A stretch of 64,000 nucleotides of DNA from an uncultured Marinicella sp. (GTDB lineage Bacteria > Pseudomonadota > Gammaproteobacteria > Xanthomonadales > Marinicellaceae), in NCBI GenBank assembly GCA_947502595.1, contig CANNAM010000002.1:186001-250000 (forward strand), written 5' to 3'. The notes under the pieces are model-generated. The model was given only the letters and a program-made list of their open reading frames with translations. It was not told where the DNA came from and did not search any database. This document shows positions 10,331-16,093 of this stretch, piece by piece (within the stretch, counting starts at the first letter, position 1; the number at the start of each line of letters is the position of its first letter). The position numbers and the translations under genes were made by a program.

Positions 10331-10592
10331 GATTGAGGTACACAGGTGAAAGTGTTTATTATAAACAATTGAAAAGTAATGTGGTGTTGTCAGTAACAAA
10401 GCTGACTATTAACTATTGAACTACCGGGAACATTTCACTGCGCAGGCAAGCAGTGCCTAATACATGACAATTTTCTGATGTACAAGAAAGCACGAAGTAA
10501 TTTCTATACACACCACCACCATTCCAGCTGAGATTTAATCAAATAATTTTTCGCTCAAGGCGCCAAACAAGTTAAAATCCACCACTCAATCC

Positions 10593-10809
10593 GCGCCCAT
10601 AGCTCAGCTGGATAGAGTAGGTTAAAGTGGTTCACTTGCCTTCATTGTTGCGGAGCAACAAAACCAGCGGCCCTCACAATTTGGATTATTAAACATAATC
10701 CGGTTGGTCGGGAGTTCGATTGAATTGTCAGGAACAATTCAACCCGTTGGCTTGCCAACGACCCCAAAGGGGCGAAGTGCATGGATGCACGGAGCAATCT
10801 CTCTGGGCA
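10593..10809 (+). pseudogene. Broken tRNA-Arg(UCG) copy interrupted by two hairpin-rich insertions
   Basis: Three pieces match the intact gene at 10890-10966 in order: 10593-10619 (acceptor 5' strand, D-arm), 10700-10719 (CCGGTTGGTC through the T-stem and the TTCGA of the T-loop) and 10797-10809 (ATCTCTCTGGGCA, T-stem and acceptor 3' strand). The anticodon bases (ACCGGCTTCGAA in the intact gene) are replaced by about 80 bp. A second insertion of about 77 bp splits the T-loop. The acceptor 3' strand reads TGGGCAC rather than TGGGCGC and no CCA follows. It cannot give a normal tRNA. Confidence 0.85.
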
Positions 10810-10822
10810 CCGTTCGGAGAAC
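10645..10822 (+). other. Run of seven short hairpins inside and after the tRNA-Arg pseudogene
   Basis: Consecutive perfect stems with tiny loops: 10645-10661 (TTGTTGC, loop GGA), 10683-10701 (GGATTAT, loop TAAAC), 10720-10742 (TTGAATTGT, loop CAGGA), 10745-10760 (CGTTGG, loop CTTG), 10762-10772 (CCCC, loop AAA), 10777-10790 (GTGCA, loop TGGA) and 10812-10822 (GTTC, loop GGA). Four of the seven present GGA in the loop. They look like a modular palindromic repeat family rather than coding DNA; no ORF of note crosses them. Whether they are transcribed is unknown. Confidence 0.6.
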
Positions 10823-10889
10823 AGCTTGAGATTTATAAAATAATTACTGGCTCAATGCATTAAACAAGTTAAAATCCACCACTCAATCC

Positions 10890-10966
10890 GCGCCCATAGC
10901 TCAGCTGGATAGAGTAACCGGCTTCGAACCGGTTGGTCGGGAGTTCGAATCTCTCTGGGCGCGCCA
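10890..10966 (+). tRNA. tRNA-Arg (anticodon UCG)
   Basis: A complete cloverleaf can be drawn by hand: acceptor GCGCCCA pairs with TGGGCGC, D-stem GCTC/GAGT, anticodon stem ACCGG/CCGGT with loop CTTCGAA (anticodon TCG, reading CGA), variable TGGTC, and T-stem GGGAG/CTCTC with loop TTCGAAT. The discriminator is G and the CCA end is encoded. The 3' end of the gene is the left attachment site of the adjacent island, which leaves the tRNA intact. Confidence 0.95.
10953..10966 (+). other. attL of the tRNA-Arg island
   Basis: CTCTGGGCGCGCCA, the last 14 bases of the intact tRNA-Arg including its CCA, is repeated exactly at 16080-16093. P4-type integrases characteristically use tRNA 3' ends as targets. 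Confidence 0.85.
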
Positions 10967-11075
10967 CTTTCCTATCTTATAACCTTTCATAAAACCTCAA
11001 AAATAACGCTTCTATGTAAGCATAGCTTAATCTATTATTTCATAAGACCTCAAGAAACTTCTTTACAACCCACGT

Positions 11076-11099
11076 AAAACAGGGGTATATTTGGGGGTA
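11076..11099 (+). repeat. Island end repeat, left copy (probable integrase arm or regulatory site)
   Basis: AAAACAGGGGTATATTTGGG plus GGTA matches 15993-16016 at 23 of 24 positions, in the same orientation. The left copy lies about 110 bp inside attL and the right copy about 64 bp inside attR. A partial inverted copy (GTACCCCC) occurs at 11131-11138, just before the integrase start. The arrangement fits arm-type integrase or recombination-directionality-factor sites. Confidence 0.6.
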
Positions 11100-11141
11100 C
11101 AAATTAGCCATTTTCGTCACTTTACAGAATGTACCCCCATA

Positions 11142-12353
11142 ATGAGCCTTAATATAAGCAGTATCAACGCCTTAGAGCATAGGTCAAAAACCTATAAAAT
11201 ATTTGATGGTGGCGGCCTTTTTTTACTGGTTCACCCCAATGGTTCTAAGTATTGGCGGCTTAAATACCGCTACCAAGGCACTGAAAAAATTATTGCGCTG
11301 GGTACTTTTGGTAAAAATAAAAATCAAGTGACATTGGCCGAAGCCAGACAAAAAGCACAAGATATTAAGAAACAACTCAAAGATGGTATTGACCCATCAG
11401 AAAAGCGCAAACAAGATAAGATTGAAAATATTAATGCCTTTAGCAATATTGCACTTGAATGGATTGATAAAAAATCAAACAAGTGGACTACTGGCCACAC
11501 CGAGGACGTAAAGCACACGTTAGAGCGCGATGTTTTCCCATACGTTGGCAATGAACCAATAAACAAGATCACCACTCAGGACTTGTTATCAGTTTTACGA
11601 AAAATTGAAAAGCGCGGTTCTTTAGAGGTTTTAAAGAAAATCAGACAACGTTGTAACAATATTTTTATCTATGCCAAAGTGATGGGTTATATCAGCAGTA
11701 ATCCAGCTGAAGGCTTGGAGTTGGTATTAAAAAGTCCAGTGCGTAAGAATTTTAACAGCATAGAGTTATCAGAATTGCCCGAACTGGTAAACGCAATCAA
11801 AACACACGCACTAGAACCAACAACCAGAACTGGCTTATTACTGGCTTTATATACATTCCAAAGAACAAACGACATCCGCGGCGCATTGTGGACTGAGTTT
11901 GATTTAAAAGCTGGTTTATGGTCTATCCCAGCAAGTAGGCACAAAATGAAGCGTGACCAGCTTGTACCACTACCGAAGCAAGCCATTGAAGCATTGAAAG
12001 CCTTACATTCAATCACAGGCCAATTCCCTTTTGTATTTGCATCAACTCACAAACCGCTTAAACAGCCCATGAGTGAAAACGCCATGCTTTATGCACTGTA
12101 TAGAATGGGTTTTCGCGGTCGCATGACAGTACATGGCTTCAGACACTTGGCATCAACCGCATTGAATGAAATGGGATATGACAGCAGATTTATTGAGAAG
12201 CAACTCAGCCACGAGGATAAAAACACTATACGCGGAACATACAACAAAGCAAAACACTTTCCTGAACGAGCCGATATGGTTCAGCAGTGGGCAGACTTTG
12301 TTGACAGGGCAGATGGATCAAATATTGTGCCAATTGGCTTAAAAAAGACTTAA
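11142..12353 (+). CDS. P4-type tyrosine recombinase (site-specific integrase)
   Basis: About 403 residues. An N-terminal DUF4102-like arm-binding domain (IFDGGGLFLLVHPNGSKYWR, IALGTFGKN) is followed by a SAM-like core-binding region and the catalytic domain. Catalytic residues seen are Arg in RTNDIRGALW, His-x-x-Arg in HGFRHLAST, His in LSHEDKNTIRG and the nucleophile Tyr in GTYNK. All are intact, so the enzyme is probably active. I chose ATG 11142 (MSLNISSIN), where family members begin; the extra upstream codons overlap the end repeat. It lies directly downstream of the tRNA-Arg target, as is usual for this family, and is the likely integrase of the island. Confidence 0.93.
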   Translation: MSLNISSINALEHRSKTYKIFDGGGLFLLVHPNGSKYWRLKYRYQGTEKIIALGTFGKNKNQVTLAEARQKAQDIKKQLKDGIDPSEKRKQDKIENINAFSNIALEWIDKKSNKWTTGHTEDVKHTLERDVFPYVGNEPINKITTQDLLSVLRKIEKRGSLEVLKKIRQRCNNIFIYAKVMGYISSNPAEGLELVLKSPVRKNFNSIELSELPELVNAIKTHALEPTTRTGLLLALYTFQRTNDIRGALWTEFDLKAGLWSIPASRHKMKRDQLVPLPKQAIEALKALHSITGQFPFVFASTHKPLKQPMSENAMLYALYRMGFRGRMTVHGFRHLASTALNEMGYDSRFIEKQLSHEDKNTIRGTYNKAKHFPERADMVQQWADFVDRADGSNIVPIGLKKT

Positions 12354-12926
12354 TACAAGTGAGCTTTTATATTGTATTTTGTATTTATTGCATAAATGGC
12401 TTTTCATTCTTTAAAAAATTTAATTAAAGCTTGGTTTTAAATATTTATATAATTTTCAACAACTTAGCTTTGTACCTGAAATTTTGTAATCTTTTTTATA
12501 ATTAAAACAAAGGTAAATACATAAAAATAGAAAACTTAAAGCCGATTAGTTGATATAATTTTGATATGGGATGGTGCTGAATGCATTATCTTGAAGTTAG
12601 TTAGAGTGATGTCATTCTAGCTTGTAGATTAAAAGAGGATTAAAGACAAACCAAGATTGAATTAAACTACGACATAAAATTCAACCTTGGTTTTAATGTA
12701 TAAATTGAAAGTTTCCGACTCTTAATTTAAATACCCAAATAAACAAAAAGTTTAATTAAGGTGACAGAATTGTCATCTAAAGGATACCAAAAGTAAAGAA
12801 CTTTAACCACTTTTGTTACATCCGATTTATTGAATCTCATTGTTTATTTTCTTTAATTTTTCTTTTAAAGGCTGCAACTATCTATATGAAGTTGCATTTT
12901 TATATTTCCTTTATGAGAATATTTAC
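12354..12926. other. Non-coding, AT-rich island segment rich in dyads
   Basis: No credible gene is seen. It contains several inverted repeats: 12648-12663 with 12678-12693 (16-base arms AAACCAAGATTGAATT, one mismatch), 12762-12775 (TGACA-GAAT-TGTCA), 12788-12815 (CAAAAGT...ACTTTTG) and 12873-12896. The cluster between 12760 and 12900 sits immediately upstream of the five-gene operon and is a plausible control region. The first could be a terminator, as it is followed by TTTTAA. Confidence 0.5.
12873..12901 (+). terminator. Hairpin plus T-run just upstream of the island operon (terminator or attenuator)
   Basis: TGCAACT and AGTTGCA form a seven-base stem with a ten-base loop, followed directly by TTTTTATATTT. 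It stands 26-30 bp before the first start codon of the operon (12927), so it would either end upstream transcription or attenuate a transcript entering the operon. Confidence 0.5.
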
Positions 12927-13124
12927 ATGAATACAATTAACAGTAAGTTAGTTTATCGCAACGATGAAGTTACCAACTTTTTAGCAATTTCACAATCAAC
13001 CTTAGACAGGCTTGTCAAATCAGGCAAGATCAAAAGAATTAAATTATCCAATCAGGCGGTAGGTTATCGCAAGCAAGATGTTCAAAAGTTTTTAGACAAT
13101 TGCAAGGAGGTTGGAAATGAATAG
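12927..13124 (+). CDS. Small helix-turn-helix protein (excisionase/MerR-like fold)
   Basis: A 65-residue protein. EVTNFLAISQSTLDRLVKSG resembles the helix-turn-helix of excisionase/HTH_17 proteins, followed by basic KIKRIKL and a GYRKQDVQKFL helix typical of the wing and last helix of that family. The start ATG at 12927 follows a weak GAG; the longer frame upstream runs through the hairpin and is not credible. First gene of the island operon, overlapping the next by eight bases. Likely an excisionase or transcription regulator of the element (inference from fold and place). Confidence 0.65.
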   Translation: MNTINSKLVYRNDEVTNFLAISQSTLDRLVKSGKIKRIKLSNQAVGYRKQDVQKFLDNCKEVGNE

Positions 13125-13332
13125 TTCAAATGAGCCTAAATACATAAGACCAAAAGAAGTGCGTGTAATGTTGGGCGGAATCAGTGCTGCAACATTATGG
13201 CGATACACCACCCAAACAGATGATTTTCCCAAACCAATCAAGCTTACAAAAAACGGTAGGGCGGTTGCTTACAATGCAAAAGAGCTTGAGGATTATTTAA
13301 ACAGCAAATGTTTGGAGCGTCATAATGGATAA
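13117..13332 (+). CDS. AlpA-family DNA-binding protein
   Basis: A 71-residue protein with the AlpA/Prophage-CP4-57 regulator layout: YIRPKEVRVMLGGISAATLW (helix-turn-helix), RYTTQTDDFPKPIKLTKNG and AVAYNAKELEDYLN. AlpA-type proteins activate integrase or excision genes of P4-like elements. AAGGAGG six bases before ATG 13117 decides the start. It overlaps both neighbours (eight bases each side), indicating translational coupling. Two consecutive HTH proteins of related design, this one and the product at 12927, suggest one acts as excisionase and one as regulator. Confidence 0.75.
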   Translation: MNSSNEPKYIRPKEVRVMLGGISAATLWRYTTQTDDFPKPIKLTKNGRAVAYNAKELEDYLNSKCLERHNG

Positions 13333-13675
13333 ACTTCAAAATAATCATGATTTGGGATGCCGTGAGGGTGGTTCTTACGGTTTAAAAGACTTTAGCCCTA
13401 ACAAGGGTGCAGGTTTTAAAAGAAAAGTTTGCCAGACACCCTTTAGCATGGGTTTAACTCAAATACCTACACCAATAGAAAAAGCGGTAGAAAACCCCAA
13501 AAGCTTAAGGCTTGCTATCAATGCAAAATGTTTTGATTGTATGGGCTGCGGTTTTGATGGTCATCCAGCTAATGAAATTAGAAATTGTGAAATTTCAGAT
13601 TGTTCTTTATGGCCACATAGACCATACAGGAAAAAGAAGCGCAATAAACCCCAAAGTAGTGAGGTGTTGAAATGA
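13325..13675 (+). CDS. Unknown protein with a five-cysteine cluster (zinc-ribbon-like)
   Basis: A 116-residue protein whose function I do not recognise. The first 60 residues look disordered (Gly/Asn/Lys-rich). The C-terminal half has Cys69, Cys72, Cys75, Cys88 and Cys93 in KCFDCMGCGFDGHP and IRNCEISDCSLWPHRPY, then a basic tail RKKKRNKP. Small phage and prophage proteins share the pattern CxxC...IRxC....C-L-W-x-x-RPY and are thought to bind zinc and perhaps nucleic acid. GGAGCG precedes the ATG. The start overlaps the AlpA-like gene by eight bases and the end overlaps the next start by four (ATGA). Confidence 0.6.
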   Translation: MDKLQNNHDLGCREGGSYGLKDFSPNKGAGFKRKVCQTPFSMGLTQIPTPIEKAVENPKSLRLAINAKCFDCMGCGFDGHPANEIRNCEISDCSLWPHRPYRKKKRNKPQSSEVLK

Positions 13676-13905
13676 TAGGTGAACAACAAACGCGCTCACT
13701 GGTTTTAGATATTGCTTCAGATATAAAACTCTGGCGTTGGATTGGTTCTGGTTCTTTTGAATTGGTTTTTGATGTTGGCAGTGGCTATATAACCAGCTAT
13801 AAATCTGATGATGTTGGGTATTTTGCAAATTTGCTTTGTGTCAATGGTCACTTTAAAGACCATGACACCGCAATAAAAAGCCTGAATCAAGGCGTATTGT
13901 CATGA
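13672..13905 (+). CDS. Small unknown protein of the island operon
   Basis: A 77-residue acidic-neutral protein without signal peptide or clear motif. Alternating hydrophobic stretches (IKLWRWIGSGSFELVFDVGSG) suggest a compact alpha/beta domain. It is fused to its neighbours by ATGA overlaps at both ends (13672-13675 and 13902-13905), which is the strongest reason to call it a real gene. Function not recognised. Confidence 0.6.
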   Translation: MIGEQQTRSLVLDIASDIKLWRWIGSGSFELVFDVGSGYITSYKSDDVGYFANLLCVNGHFKDHDTAIKSLNQGVLS

Positions 13906-14300
13906 AGTGGGATTTTGAGCCGAAAATTAAAGAGGGTGAATATCAGGTGGTCTATTTTGGCCACCGTTTTGAGCAAAAGTTTGGCAACCCTAAACTGCTA
14001 TTGCAATTCACTATTGCTGAATTAACCGAGTATGAAAACGCTGTATTAACCAAGTATTTTCCTATAAAGAAGTTTAATAAAAAAAACGGCTTCAGGGTTA
14101 GCAAGGCGCAAGAATTTGCAACCTTTTGGTTTTCAGTGTTTCCAGATCATGACTTTTCAAGAATGGATAGGTTTCATTTAACCAAGCTGAAAGGGCTGGT
14201 ATTAGTTGCGGTCGTAAAAGATAGGGTTTTAGATTGGCAACAAAAAGAAATACCCTTACCACTTAGAACTTCTAAAGTTGTGAAATTGAAGCCTTTATGA
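13902..14300 (+). CDS. Unknown 132-residue protein, last gene of the island operon
   Basis: A soluble protein with no signal peptide. The N-terminal region (KEGEYQVVYFGHRFEQKFGN, LLLQFTIAEL) has the strand pattern of small phage proteins linked to recombination or single-stranded DNA binding (DUF669-like or OB-fold), while the C-terminal part is basic (LPLRTSKVVKLKPL). This resemblance is weak and I do not assign a function. Translation is coupled to the preceding gene by a four-base overlap. If it proves to bind single-stranded DNA, the element may have a simple replication or recombination function. Confidence 0.55.
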   Translation: MKWDFEPKIKEGEYQVVYFGHRFEQKFGNPKLLLQFTIAELTEYENAVLTKYFPIKKFNKKNGFRVSKAQEFATFWFSVFPDHDFSRMDRFHLTKLKGLVLVAVVKDRVLDWQQKEIPLPLRTSKVVKLKPL

Positions 14301-14615
14301 TTTGCCATTTTTTACTTTTAGTTATCACGCCCAATGCTAATGCTGGCAACGTTTTATAGCACCTTTTTTTACTTGGTGTTATAGAGTAGAGTTGAGATGA
14401 TTAGATGGGAAAAGAAAAGATATAAATAAGAGTAAATGATTTTAACTGTTTTCCAGCGTGGTTGTAGGTGCTGGAATTACCATTATAACTATTAAAGCCT
14501 ACTATACCCCAAAGAGCCAGATTGTAATATTAAGGTTCTTTGGGGAAACCACCAAAGCCATTAAGTCAATTTTAACAACAGATTGCCCTTAGTGTAATGG
14601 CTTAGCTTTTAAAGC
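14301..14615. other. Non-coding segment between convergent island genes, with two dyads
   Basis: No gene seen. 14355-14363 pairs with 14375-14383 (TATAGCACC / GGTGTTATA, one mismatch), a possible terminator for the operon. 14507-14518 pairs with 14534-14545 (CCCCAAAGAGCC / GGTTCTTTGGGG, one mismatch) over a 15-base AT-rich loop; the AAAGCC hexamer flanks it on both sides. The second dyad has no T-run and is unusually long for a terminator here. Confidence 0.5.
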
Positions 14616-15260
14616 TCATTTGGCTGTGTGACCATCTTTCTCTAGTGCTTTCAGTATGGTTTTGACCGCGCCTTTTGCGTCCCCTTTTTCACTAACAAAG
14701 AATGTACCTCCAGCTTTTACAACAATATCAGCCATCCAAGCTGTTTTACCGTTTGAAGGATCAAACAATATGGCACTGAATTCAGCTTTAGATTTTGCAT
14801 AGTTGGTGGTGTATGTATTTGAATTAGTCTGAGCGTTACCATTAAACCTTGCGCTGTTGGGTGTTGTTTGCTGAACTGTTCCGTTTATGTTGGTGTTAGA
14901 AAAAGTGTTTTTCATTATTGGAATCACTTGCTTGGTTGACATCCCTGGTGTTATCACTAAAACAGAGTCAATGCCGTATTGAGTAATTCTACTATCTATC
15001 TGCTCATAACTCCATTTCCTTGTGGGTGGAAAAAGGGCTGAATATAAAGATACCTTCATGCCTTTTTTAGTGAAATACTTTTCAACTCTCTTTTCAATTT
15101 CAATTCTCATTGATGATGAAGCATTGCTAACATGAACAAGTGTATGTTTAGGCTGAAAATTTATATAGTCTGGGTCTGTAAAGCTCTGGTAATCACTAGA
15201 GCGAAAAGCTGAACTGTTTAAGCTGAACAATAAAAAAGCTATGCAGCTAATAGTTTTCAT
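14616..15260 (-). CDS. Exported protein of unknown function carried by the island
   Basis: A 214-residue protein with a Sec signal peptide (MKTISCIAFLLFSLNSSAF, cleavage near residue 19). GGAG seven bases before ATG 15260 fixes the start. After the signal come an alpha/beta domain (HTLVHVSNASSSMRIEIEKRVEKYF), an SVLVITPG strand, a Thr/Asn/Gln-rich low-complexity stretch around residues 120-150, then KAEFSAILFDPSNGKTAWMADIVVKAGG and a C-terminal helix. The layout recalls periplasmic proteins with an ABC-type auxiliary or DUF4136-like fold that act on envelope components, but I cannot name a family. It is the only island gene on the minus strand and looks like cargo. Confidence 0.65.
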   Translation of the reverse strand: MKTISCIAFLLFSLNSSAFRSSDYQSFTDPDYINFQPKHTLVHVSNASSSMRIEIEKRVEKYFTKKGMKVSLYSALFPPTRKWSYEQIDSRITQYGIDSVLVITPGMSTKQVIPIMKNTFSNTNINGTVQQTTPNSARFNGNAQTNSNTYTTNYAKSKAEFSAILFDPSNGKTAWMADIVVKAGGTFFVSEKGDAKGAVKTILKALEKDGHTAK

Positions 15261-15784
15261 AAGTCTACTCCAAATATACAATCATAAGTTTTTAGTTTAA
15301 TTAAGTACATGAAAACCAGATAAATTATTTAATTGTAGGAAAATATTGACTAATAATTCAGAAAATATGTGTGTAAGAGCCTTTGTTAAGTTGCGATAAT
15401 GCTAATCATGGTCACTGGCTTACTACTGTAAACCGACTTGTACAGTCAGGTGTTAGGTTTGTTCAGTGATCAGTCTTAGTCTTATATCGGGAACAATTAA
15501 TTTTTGGACACTATAAAAAAGGGTTTTCTTACACAGTAAAAAGAGTAGTTTCTTGTCACTATAAAAAAGGTGGCTTTAAAAGAAGCCCAAACACACGCTC
15601 AAAGTTTTTATTCTGCGGATGTAGAAAAAAGGTTAAGCACACGAATGTAGGTAATAATAACTTCAGGTTTCATTCATACCCCCCCTTAGAAGCACATCAT
15701 AGAATATATATCCTACGGATTTAAAAAAAGTATTAAGCACACGGGTTAACACATTAGAATAAACTTCTTAATTAAACAACAACA

Positions 15785-15925
15785 ACCCCCTCAGGCCATA
15801 AATCTGGCGATACCTTGCACTCGTAAGCCCCCGTAAGATAATGGCTTTAGAAGTACCTTTATTGAACCATACGGGGATAGCTGAAAGTAATCACATGTCA
15901 ATGTGGTGTAACGAAAGCCCAGCTA
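15785..15925. ncRNA. Candidate structured RNA or structured origin in the island
   Basis: Several nested pairings are visible by eye: 15829-15835 CCCCGTA with TACGGGG near 15870-15876 (seven bases, enclosing TGG/CCA), the hairpin CACAT-GTCA-ATGTG near 15892-15905, GCCA-TAAATC-TGGC near 15796-15809, and an outer AGCT...AGCT closing near 15879 and 15921. The block is less AT-rich than its surroundings and has no ORF. P4-like elements use small antisense RNAs (C4/CI type) for immunity, which makes an RNA here plausible, but I cannot assign a family or even the strand. Confidence 0.35.
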
Positions 15926-15992
15926 AATATTTACATTCACAATATTTCATTTTTGGTTTTAAAATTCTGGAAATTTGAAGCAGTCGAAATGA

Positions 15993-16016
15993 AAAACAGG
16001 GGTATATATGGGGGTA
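15993..16016 (+). repeat. Island end repeat, right copy
   Basis: AAAACAGGGGTATATATGGG plus GGTA differs from the left copy (11076-11099) at one base. It lies inside attR, about 64 bp from the 14-bp core. Long near-identical repeats at both ends of an otherwise unrepetitive element support a role in integration or excision. Confidence 0.6.
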
Positions 16017-16079
16017 TAAAATTTTAATCAGATGCGTAAAGTATTTATTATCAATAAGTTATATGCTTAGTATGACGCC

Positions 16080-16093
16080 CTCTGGGCGCGCCA
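16080..16093 (+). other. attR of the tRNA-Arg island
   Basis: An exact 14-bp copy of the tRNA-Arg 3' end (CTCTGGGCGCGCCA) with no tRNA body in front of it, as expected for the distal junction. Base composition returns to that of the flanking chromosome after it. Confidence 0.85.

What the first reader, a model, noticed from the sequence alone, without database searches (positions are those of the whole stretch)
10953..16093. Compact tRNA-Arg island with no recognisable replication or packaging genes
A 14-bp repeat of the tRNA 3' end brackets 5.1 kb of AT-rich DNA with an intact P4-type integrase, two small HTH/AlpA-like proteins, three unknown coupled genes and one exported protein. No replicase, relaxase or virion gene is visible. 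It may be a minimal phage satellite or a cargo-carrying integrative element of an undescribed type. Seen: repeat, gene order, integrase catalytic residues. Known: P4-type integrases use tRNA ends. Inferred: satellite nature.
Basis: partly seen in the sequence, partly recalled or inferred. Interest (0 to 1): 0.75.

Follow-up and report, generated by a model that had tools for sequence, protein, structure and literature searches.

The report
Tiny phage-satellite-like island at tRNA-Arg
A 5.1-kb mobile island beside a tRNA gene belongs to a set of very small islands that look like parasites of bacterial viruses; several relatives carry a viral DNA-packaging gene, while this one is cut down to integration, control and a probable DNA-binding replication helper.

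Summary
The island is real: an exact 14-bp copy of the tRNA-Arg(TCG) 3' end brackets 5,127 bp, with a P4-type integrase, two AlpA-like regulators, three overlapping unknown genes (orf4-6), a divergent gene for a probably exported protein and about 800 bp of non-coding DNA. In three sister species the same tRNA lies next to the same downstream gene without it. Orf6 is the key. Its family was found at 25 loci; 11 with both ends found are 5.0-8.2 kb islands at tRNA genes. An integrase lies upstream in 20 of 25, a phage small-terminase (TerS) gene downstream in 10 of 25. In one locus the orf6 domain is fused to a primase-polymerase; two orf6-less cousins sharing non-coding blocks have a helicase in its place; a moderate-confidence model resembles DUF669/SSB OB-folds. 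I read the island as a primase-less, TerS-less member of a PICI/PICMI-like satellite group: AlpA triggers excision, orf6 supports copying by a helper phage, and helper terminase packs it through a cis site. Mobility, helper and packaging are untested. By published criteria it is neither a PICI nor a PICMI, because the replication gene is missing.

The parts
10890..10966 (+). tRNA-Arg (anticodon TCG), integration site; its last 14 bases are attL core
10953..10966 (+). attL core CTCTGGGCGCGCCA
11076..11103 (+). 28-bp repeat next to attL, candidate integrase arm site (inferred)
   Evidence: similar paired repeats near both ends in L027
11142..12353 (+). P4-type tyrosine integrase (403 aa)
12927..13124 (+). 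AlpA-like regulator 1
   Evidence: HTH_17 31.1 bits, Phage_AlpA 22.1 bits, above cut-offs
13117..13332 (+). AlpA-like regulator 2
   Evidence: Phage_AlpA 25.8 bits, cut-off 21
13325..13675 (+). orf4: small protein with a cysteine pattern that looks zinc-binding (by eye); relatives in L019, L020, L021, L027, L028, L029, L061, L072
   Evidence: no family hit
13672..13905 (+). orf5: 77 aa, conserved in sister elements (80% identical in L019); dN/dS 0.11
13902..14300 (+). orf6: 132 aa, marker of the element family; probable OB-fold ssDNA-binding-like domain in the replication slot (inferred); dN/dS 0.10
14616..15260 (-). divergent gene for a probably exported 214-aa protein, cargo; found in no other of 18 genus genomes
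15395..15571 (.). conserved non-coding blocks shared with other elements, with two exact copies of CACTATAAAAAAGG (15509, 15557); candidate origin or packaging site (inferred)
15770..15860 (.). conserved non-coding block shared with L029 and L032 near their distal ends; candidate packaging site or origin (inferred)
15993..16020 (+). 28-bp repeat next to attR, candidate integrase arm site (inferred)
16080..16093 (+). attR core CTCTGGGCGCGCCA

Best explanation
A very small phage satellite, working like a Gram-negative PICI or a PICMI but pared down further. Shown: integrase with tRNA-derived att repeats, empty sites in sister species, AlpA-type regulators, a tight operon under purifying selection, a family of similar 5-8 kb islands of which 10 of 25 loci carry a phage small terminase. 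Inferred: helper infection switches on the AlpA operon; AlpA with Int excises the circle; orf6, an OB-fold ssDNA-binding-like protein standing where cousins have a helicase or a Prim-Pol fusion, recruits or supports the helper's (or host's) replisome at the conserved non-coding region, giving concatemers; lacking its own TerS, the island is packed by the helper's terminase through a pac- or cos-like cis site, as described for some PICIs and for PICMI; the divergent gene is cargo.
For: att repeat and chance; empty sites next to the same TPMT-like gene in G018, G002, G009; orf6 family at 25 loci, integrase upstream on the same strand in 20 of 25, small terminase downstream in 10 of 25, 11 elements of 5.0-8.2 kb with both ends found; orf6 domain as the C-terminus of a Prim-Pol/PriCT_1 protein in L063 (hhalign probability 96); AAA_25 helicase-like protein in the same slot in L134 and L136, which share non-coding blocks with the window; OB-fold-like model with DUF669/SSB matches and PrgE as best PDB match; dN/dS 0.10-0.11 for orf6 and orf5; cargo in relatives includes toxin-antitoxin and SIR2-like genes, usual for satellites.
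Against: The window element itself has neither TerS nor any replicase, and 15 of 25 orf6 loci gave no TerS (several of them cut by contig ends or only partly scanned). No helper is known; in the own genome the phrog_2 large-terminase profile gave only two short weak matches. No match of orf6 or of the non-coding region to 50,697 phage records or of orf6 to IMG/VR contigs. The OB-fold rests on one model of mean pLDDT 62.5 (the other four 43-48), no PDB match at E<=0.001, and the next PDB matches are toxin B-subunits, another OB-fold group; a second model, of L064 orf6, failed (pLDDT 37.4). No Pfam family for orf6.
Confidence: 0.6

Rival explanations
1. A decaying or immobile relic of such a satellite: it once had TerS and the int-adjacent gene, lost them, and now stays put.
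For: No TerS; the 280-430-aa gene between int and AlpA of several relatives is missing; a 47-bp copy of the host rplI 3' region sits in the int-AlpA gap; large non-coding stretches.
Against: All genes open, integrase motifs intact, exact att repeats, dN/dS 0.10-0.11 for orf6 and orf5 (orf4 0.40 is laxer); complete relatives L020, L021 and L029 also gave no TerS; PICMI also lacks terS and is active.
Confidence: 0.22
2. A small conjugation hitch-hiker: an integrative element without relaxase, mobilised through an oriT by a resident or incoming conjugative element; the non-coding blocks are the oriT and orf6 a PrgE-like accessory.
For: Conserved distal non-coding blocks; best PDB match PrgE is from a conjugative plasmid; no TerS here.
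Against: TerS in 10 of 25 relatives; Prim-Pol and helicase in the orf6 slot; no relaxase among the families seen; PrgE is reported as not essential for conjugation (section heading seen); no plasmid record matched an orf6 query (one query).
Confidence: 0.12
3. A plain cargo island moved only rarely by generalized transduction or natural transformation, with int/AlpA serving excision but no dedicated transfer strategy.
For: Nothing in the window shows a transfer function directly.
Against: Family-wide conserved core, TerS in many relatives, conserved non-coding blocks.
Confidence: 0.06

Closest known systems
PICMI, phage-inducible chromosomal minimalist islands (PMC10803314; sections on excision/replication, distribution and discussion read)
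   Same: Very small (average 6.7 kb in Vibrionaceae), int then AlpA then small genes, often a gene overlapping int by 4 bases (also in L026 here), no terS or capsid genes, high-turnover defence cargo near the end.
   Different: PICMI core includes prim and sits at fis in Vibrionaceae; the window element sits at tRNA-Arg and has no primase; several relatives carry TerS, which PICMI115 lacks.
Gram-negative PICIs such as EcCICFT073 (PMC6092414; passages seen)
   Same: Integrase, AlpA activator, optional TerS or a helper pac/cos site, modular layout.
   Different: PICIs encode a replication module (pri/rep and ori); here no primase or initiator, instead an OB-fold-like orf6; much smaller than the 10-15 kb usual for PICIs (recalled).
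DUF669-type phage proteins / phage SSBs (predicted structures in BFVD)
   Same: Fold of the orf6 model: 28 matches with E<=0.001, of which 6 bear the name DUF669 and 1 single-stranded DNA binding protein.
   Different: No detectable sequence match of orf6 members to Pfam.
PrgE of plasmid pCF10 (PMC11137577; abstract and section list seen)
   Same: Best PDB match of the orf6 model, an OB-fold DNA-binding protein on a mobile element.
   Different: E 4e-3, 13% identity; conjugative plasmid of a Gram-positive host.
P4-like satellites
   Same: P4-type integrase at a tRNA 3' end, AlpA-type regulator.
   Different: No alpha replicase/primase and no capsid-sizing gene found.

Membership tests
Gram-negative PICI | Own integrase and specific attachment site | tested here: met
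Gram-negative PICI | AlpA-type activator | tested here: met
   two copies above cut-off
Gram-negative PICI | Replication module (pri/rep) | tested here: not met
   no primase, helicase or initiator in the seven proteins; orf6 is only the C-terminal domain of a Prim-Pol in L063
Gram-negative PICI | TerS, or a helper pac/cos site (optional features) | tested here: inconclusive
   TerS not found in the window, found in 10 of 25 relatives; no phage with a matching site
Gram-negative PICI | Induction and packaging by a helper phage | not testable with these tools
   needs infection experiments
PICMI | int, AlpA and prim co-located | tested here: not met
   int and AlpA present, no primase
PICMI | Integration at fis | tested here: not met
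   tRNA-Arg
P4-like satellite | Alpha-type replication protein and capsid-sizing or Psu-type genes (recalled) | tested here: not met
   no such family
Mobilizable element with relaxase (IME) | Relaxase gene | tested here: not met
DUF669 family | Match to the family profile (Pfam) | tested here: not met
   none of 20 orf6 members matches it at E<=1; only fold similarity

The most novel reading that the evidence does not exclude
A satellite lineage that has given up its own replicase: the stand-alone OB-fold domain of a former Prim-Pol (orf6) is all that remains of the replication module and captures the helper's replisome, while TerS-less members such as the window element also leave packaging wholly to the helper through a cis site, making them the leanest helper-dependent DNA parasites of this layout.
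Probability: 0.33. Interest if true: 0.72.

Novelty: new variant of a known kind. Interest (0 to 1): 0.5.

Why it matters
If true, it lowers the known minimum for hijacking a tailed phage: PICMI work set the core at int, AlpA and a primase. Here the primase is gone, and a small conserved protein with an OB-fold-like model sits in the replication slot, exchangeable with a helicase or a Prim-Pol fusion in cousins. That makes a clear question testable: can one ssDNA-binding domain plus a cis site be enough to be copied by a helper phage? It also gives a search handle (the orf6 profile) for islands that tools asking for a primase or terminase would miss.

Tried and rejected
Orf6 in named genomes: the window protein found nothing in genome contigs; a three-row alignment of relatives found two Lysobacterales MAG contigs, JALSIL010000425.1 and JAMOMK010000104.1. 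IMG/VR gave nothing for either query.

Sequence routes to a function of orf6: Pfam, PHROGs, NCBIfam, PADLOC, Pfam for 20 members and PDB by profile (best E 0.53) gave nothing. For the exported protein PDB search gave only chance matches, PADLOC a weak pAgo match (E 0.005) that I reject as a chance hit to a short stretch, and the genus search found it only in the own genome (1 of 18).

Second structure job (L064 orf6) failed in quality and was not searched. A homology of orf5 to the small gene before the helicase in L136 and L134 is weak: 24 aligned columns, probabilities 81 and 22; I do not rely on it. Own-genome large terminase: two short weak matches, and the control rang in 11 of 14 genomes, so it neither shows nor excludes a resident helper. 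Rfam found only the tRNA above its cut-off. Promoter and terminator scans were near shuffle level (21 against 17.3; 4 against 4.0). The Pfam tally of 59 further proteins of the relatives lists 25 families, the cap of that output; none of the 25 is a primase, replicative helicase or relaxase, but rarer families could be hidden, and some of the 59 may lie outside element ends that I could not place (L026, L059, L061, L062, L071).

Phylum-wide sample: 0 of 298 other genomes with the orf6 profile, so the family looks patchy outside the host family.
Full report
What is there. The 14-bp repeat is exact and unique in the window and equals the last 14 bases of tRNA-Arg(TCG). Between the copies lie int, two AlpA-type genes, orf4, orf5, orf6 in one overlapping run, then a divergent gene and 798 bp (15282-16079) of AT-rich DNA without an ORF over 45 aa. 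Int carries the three domains of P4-type integrases. Two 28-bp repeats, 93% identical, lie 110 bp inside attL and 60 bp inside attR; similar paired repeats occur in L027. I take them as arm sites.

Empty site. In G018 the same tRNA-Arg is followed after 88 bases by the TPMT-like methyltransferase gene that follows attR in the window. Coordinates give the same layout in G002 (97 bases) and G009 (266 bases). In the window 146 bases separate attR from that gene. The core of G018 differs from the window's by one base. So the island is an insertion relative to these three species.

The marker gene. Orf6 has no profile match, but whole-genome searches found its family in 14 of 33 genomes of the host family, 17 of 299 of the order sample (overlapping the former), 6 of 369 of a class sample and only the own genome among 299 of a phylum sample. 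Distinct loci: 15 + 5 (G005:C2, G011:C7, G014:C35, G063, G100) + 5 = 25. The two found under public names, JALSIL010000425.1 and JAMOMK010000104.1, are contigs of Lysobacterales MAGs and the same places as two of the 25. Queries with the window's orf6 and two relatives found no convincing match in 50,697 phage records (one match at E 6) and one relative none in 72,556 plasmid records.

The element family. In 20 of 25 loci a tyrosine integrase gene lies upstream on the same strand: window, L019, L020, L021, L025-L032, L059-L063, L071, L072, L075. L022-L024 are cut by contig ends; L073 has an integrase downstream; L074 has none. In 11 of 25 I found both ends as a repeat of a tRNA 3' end, with spans of 5,009 to 8,166 bp: window 5,127; L020 6,657; L021 6,298; L025 5,009; L027 5,677; L028 6,450; L029 5,393; L030 6,912; L031 7,021; L032 7,161; L060 8,166. 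For L019, L026, L061, L062, L063, L071 and L075 no convincing partner repeat was found (L019 has a masked stretch), and the rest are truncated or were not tested. Sites are tRNA-Arg, -Phe, -Leu; L019 lies by tRNA-Thr and L026 by tmRNA.

Packaging. PHROG small-terminase profiles match a gene downstream of orf6, same strand, in 10 of 25 loci: L025, L027, L028, L031, L032 and L030, L060, L061, L072, L075, of at least four kinds (phrog_309, 83, 606, 51). L062 has one 7.4 kb further on, not counted. The window and the complete relatives L020, L021 and L029 showed no such gene. This is the strongest sign that the family uses phage packaging; it is indirect for the window.

Replication slot. In L063 (G100) an element with int and an AlpA-type gene codes for a 386-aa protein with Prim-Pol (5e-15) and PriCT_1 (3e-10) domains whose C-terminus aligns with the orf6 profile over 112 columns (hhalign probability 96; pair E-value 3e-9, not a database E-value; also E 1e-6). 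L134 and L136, found because they share non-coding blocks with the window, have no orf6; a protein with an AAA_25 domain (1e-35, 2e-38), like phage primase-helicases in PHROGs, sits there, before cargo and the shared non-coding DNA. L136 is a complete element of 7,028 bp. A model of the window orf6 built from three sequences has mean pLDDT 62.5 (other four models 43-48) and the order strand-strand-strand-helix-strand-strand. Predicted viral structures give 28 matches at E<=0.001, of which six are named DUF669 and one single-stranded DNA binding protein; the best solved structure is PrgE (E 4e-3, probability 1.00), followed by B-subunits of AB5-type toxins, another OB-fold group, so the PDB search supports the fold, not a function. 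A second model, of L064 orf6, was useless. Fold and slot together make 'OB-fold ssDNA-binding helper of replication' likely, not shown.

Non-coding DNA. Blocks at 15395-15571 recur in L019, L020 and L022, and 15770-15860 in L029 and L032, whose neighbouring genes differ. A search of 33 family genomes matched in 12, some weakly and possibly by chance (E 0.002-0.008). CACTATAAAAAAGG occurs twice exactly in the window (0.06 expected with one mismatch); of 25 loci scanned with up to two mismatches, L022, L020, L136, L137 and L060 have two or more copies near their element DNA, many others one or none. Origin, packaging site or regulatory site cannot be told apart here.

Selection and mosaicism. 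Against L019, dN/dS is 0.10 (orf6), 0.11 (orf5) and 0.40 (orf4); dS is near or beyond saturation in other pairs. The window integrase is nearest to that of L025 (70%), an element at tRNA-Leu whose orf6 is only 29% identical, while its orf6 is nearest to L019 (77%), whose integrase is 54% identical (16 integrases, 13 orf6). Modules have been swapped.

Cargo. The window's divergent protein is found in no other of 18 genus genomes.

Comparison. PICMI and Gram-negative PICIs (passages) share layout and probable logic: AlpA activates; some PICIs lack TerS and use helper pac or cos; PICMI has no terS and is packed as concatemers. Both encode a primase or replication module, which is absent here, so I do not file the island in either. 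PNAS 2025 work on tmRNA islands with intY and alpA moved by a jumbo phage (PMC12595487, passages) shows that such islands without transfer genes can be phage-borne. Literature searches (open-licence papers only, listings seen) showed no description of islands with this gene.

Noticed in passing
window 10535-10830: A second tRNA-Arg copy upstream is interrupted by about 80 bases after the D-arm and by about 77 bases in the T-loop; the T-loop insert is a string of four hairpins, found at tRNA-Arg loci of sister species (inside such copies or just downstream of the tRNA), with 10 of 24 predicted pairs changed on both sides in 7 sequences. Looks like a conserved structured RNA or repeat; function unknown.
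   Followed up: partly
window 12513-12559: 47 bases in the int-AlpA gap are 96% identical to the host's own rplI-dnaB spacer (G000:C10:65356-65402), starting at the rplI stop codon and ending inside the terminator hairpin.
   Followed up: partly
L091, L092, L094 (G004, G014, G017), 3' of tRNA-Arg: The DNA after the same tRNA-Arg differs from the empty site and reads like the start of other integrated elements (by eye, not annotated), so this tRNA may be an integration hot spot.
   Followed up: no
L134:5085-9700 and L136:2372-9215: Orf6-less cousins with a helicase-like AAA_25 protein in the orf6 slot, at tRNA-Phe and tRNA-Thr.
   Followed up: partly
L026:4887-8646: An island at tmRNA carries a SIR2-like protein and a 939-aa partner without Pfam match, a possible defence pair.
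   Followed up: no
L061:10267-11757 and L135:991-2484: A ~496-aa HHH-motif protein follows TerS in two genomes, a recurrent cargo gene of unknown role.
   Followed up: no
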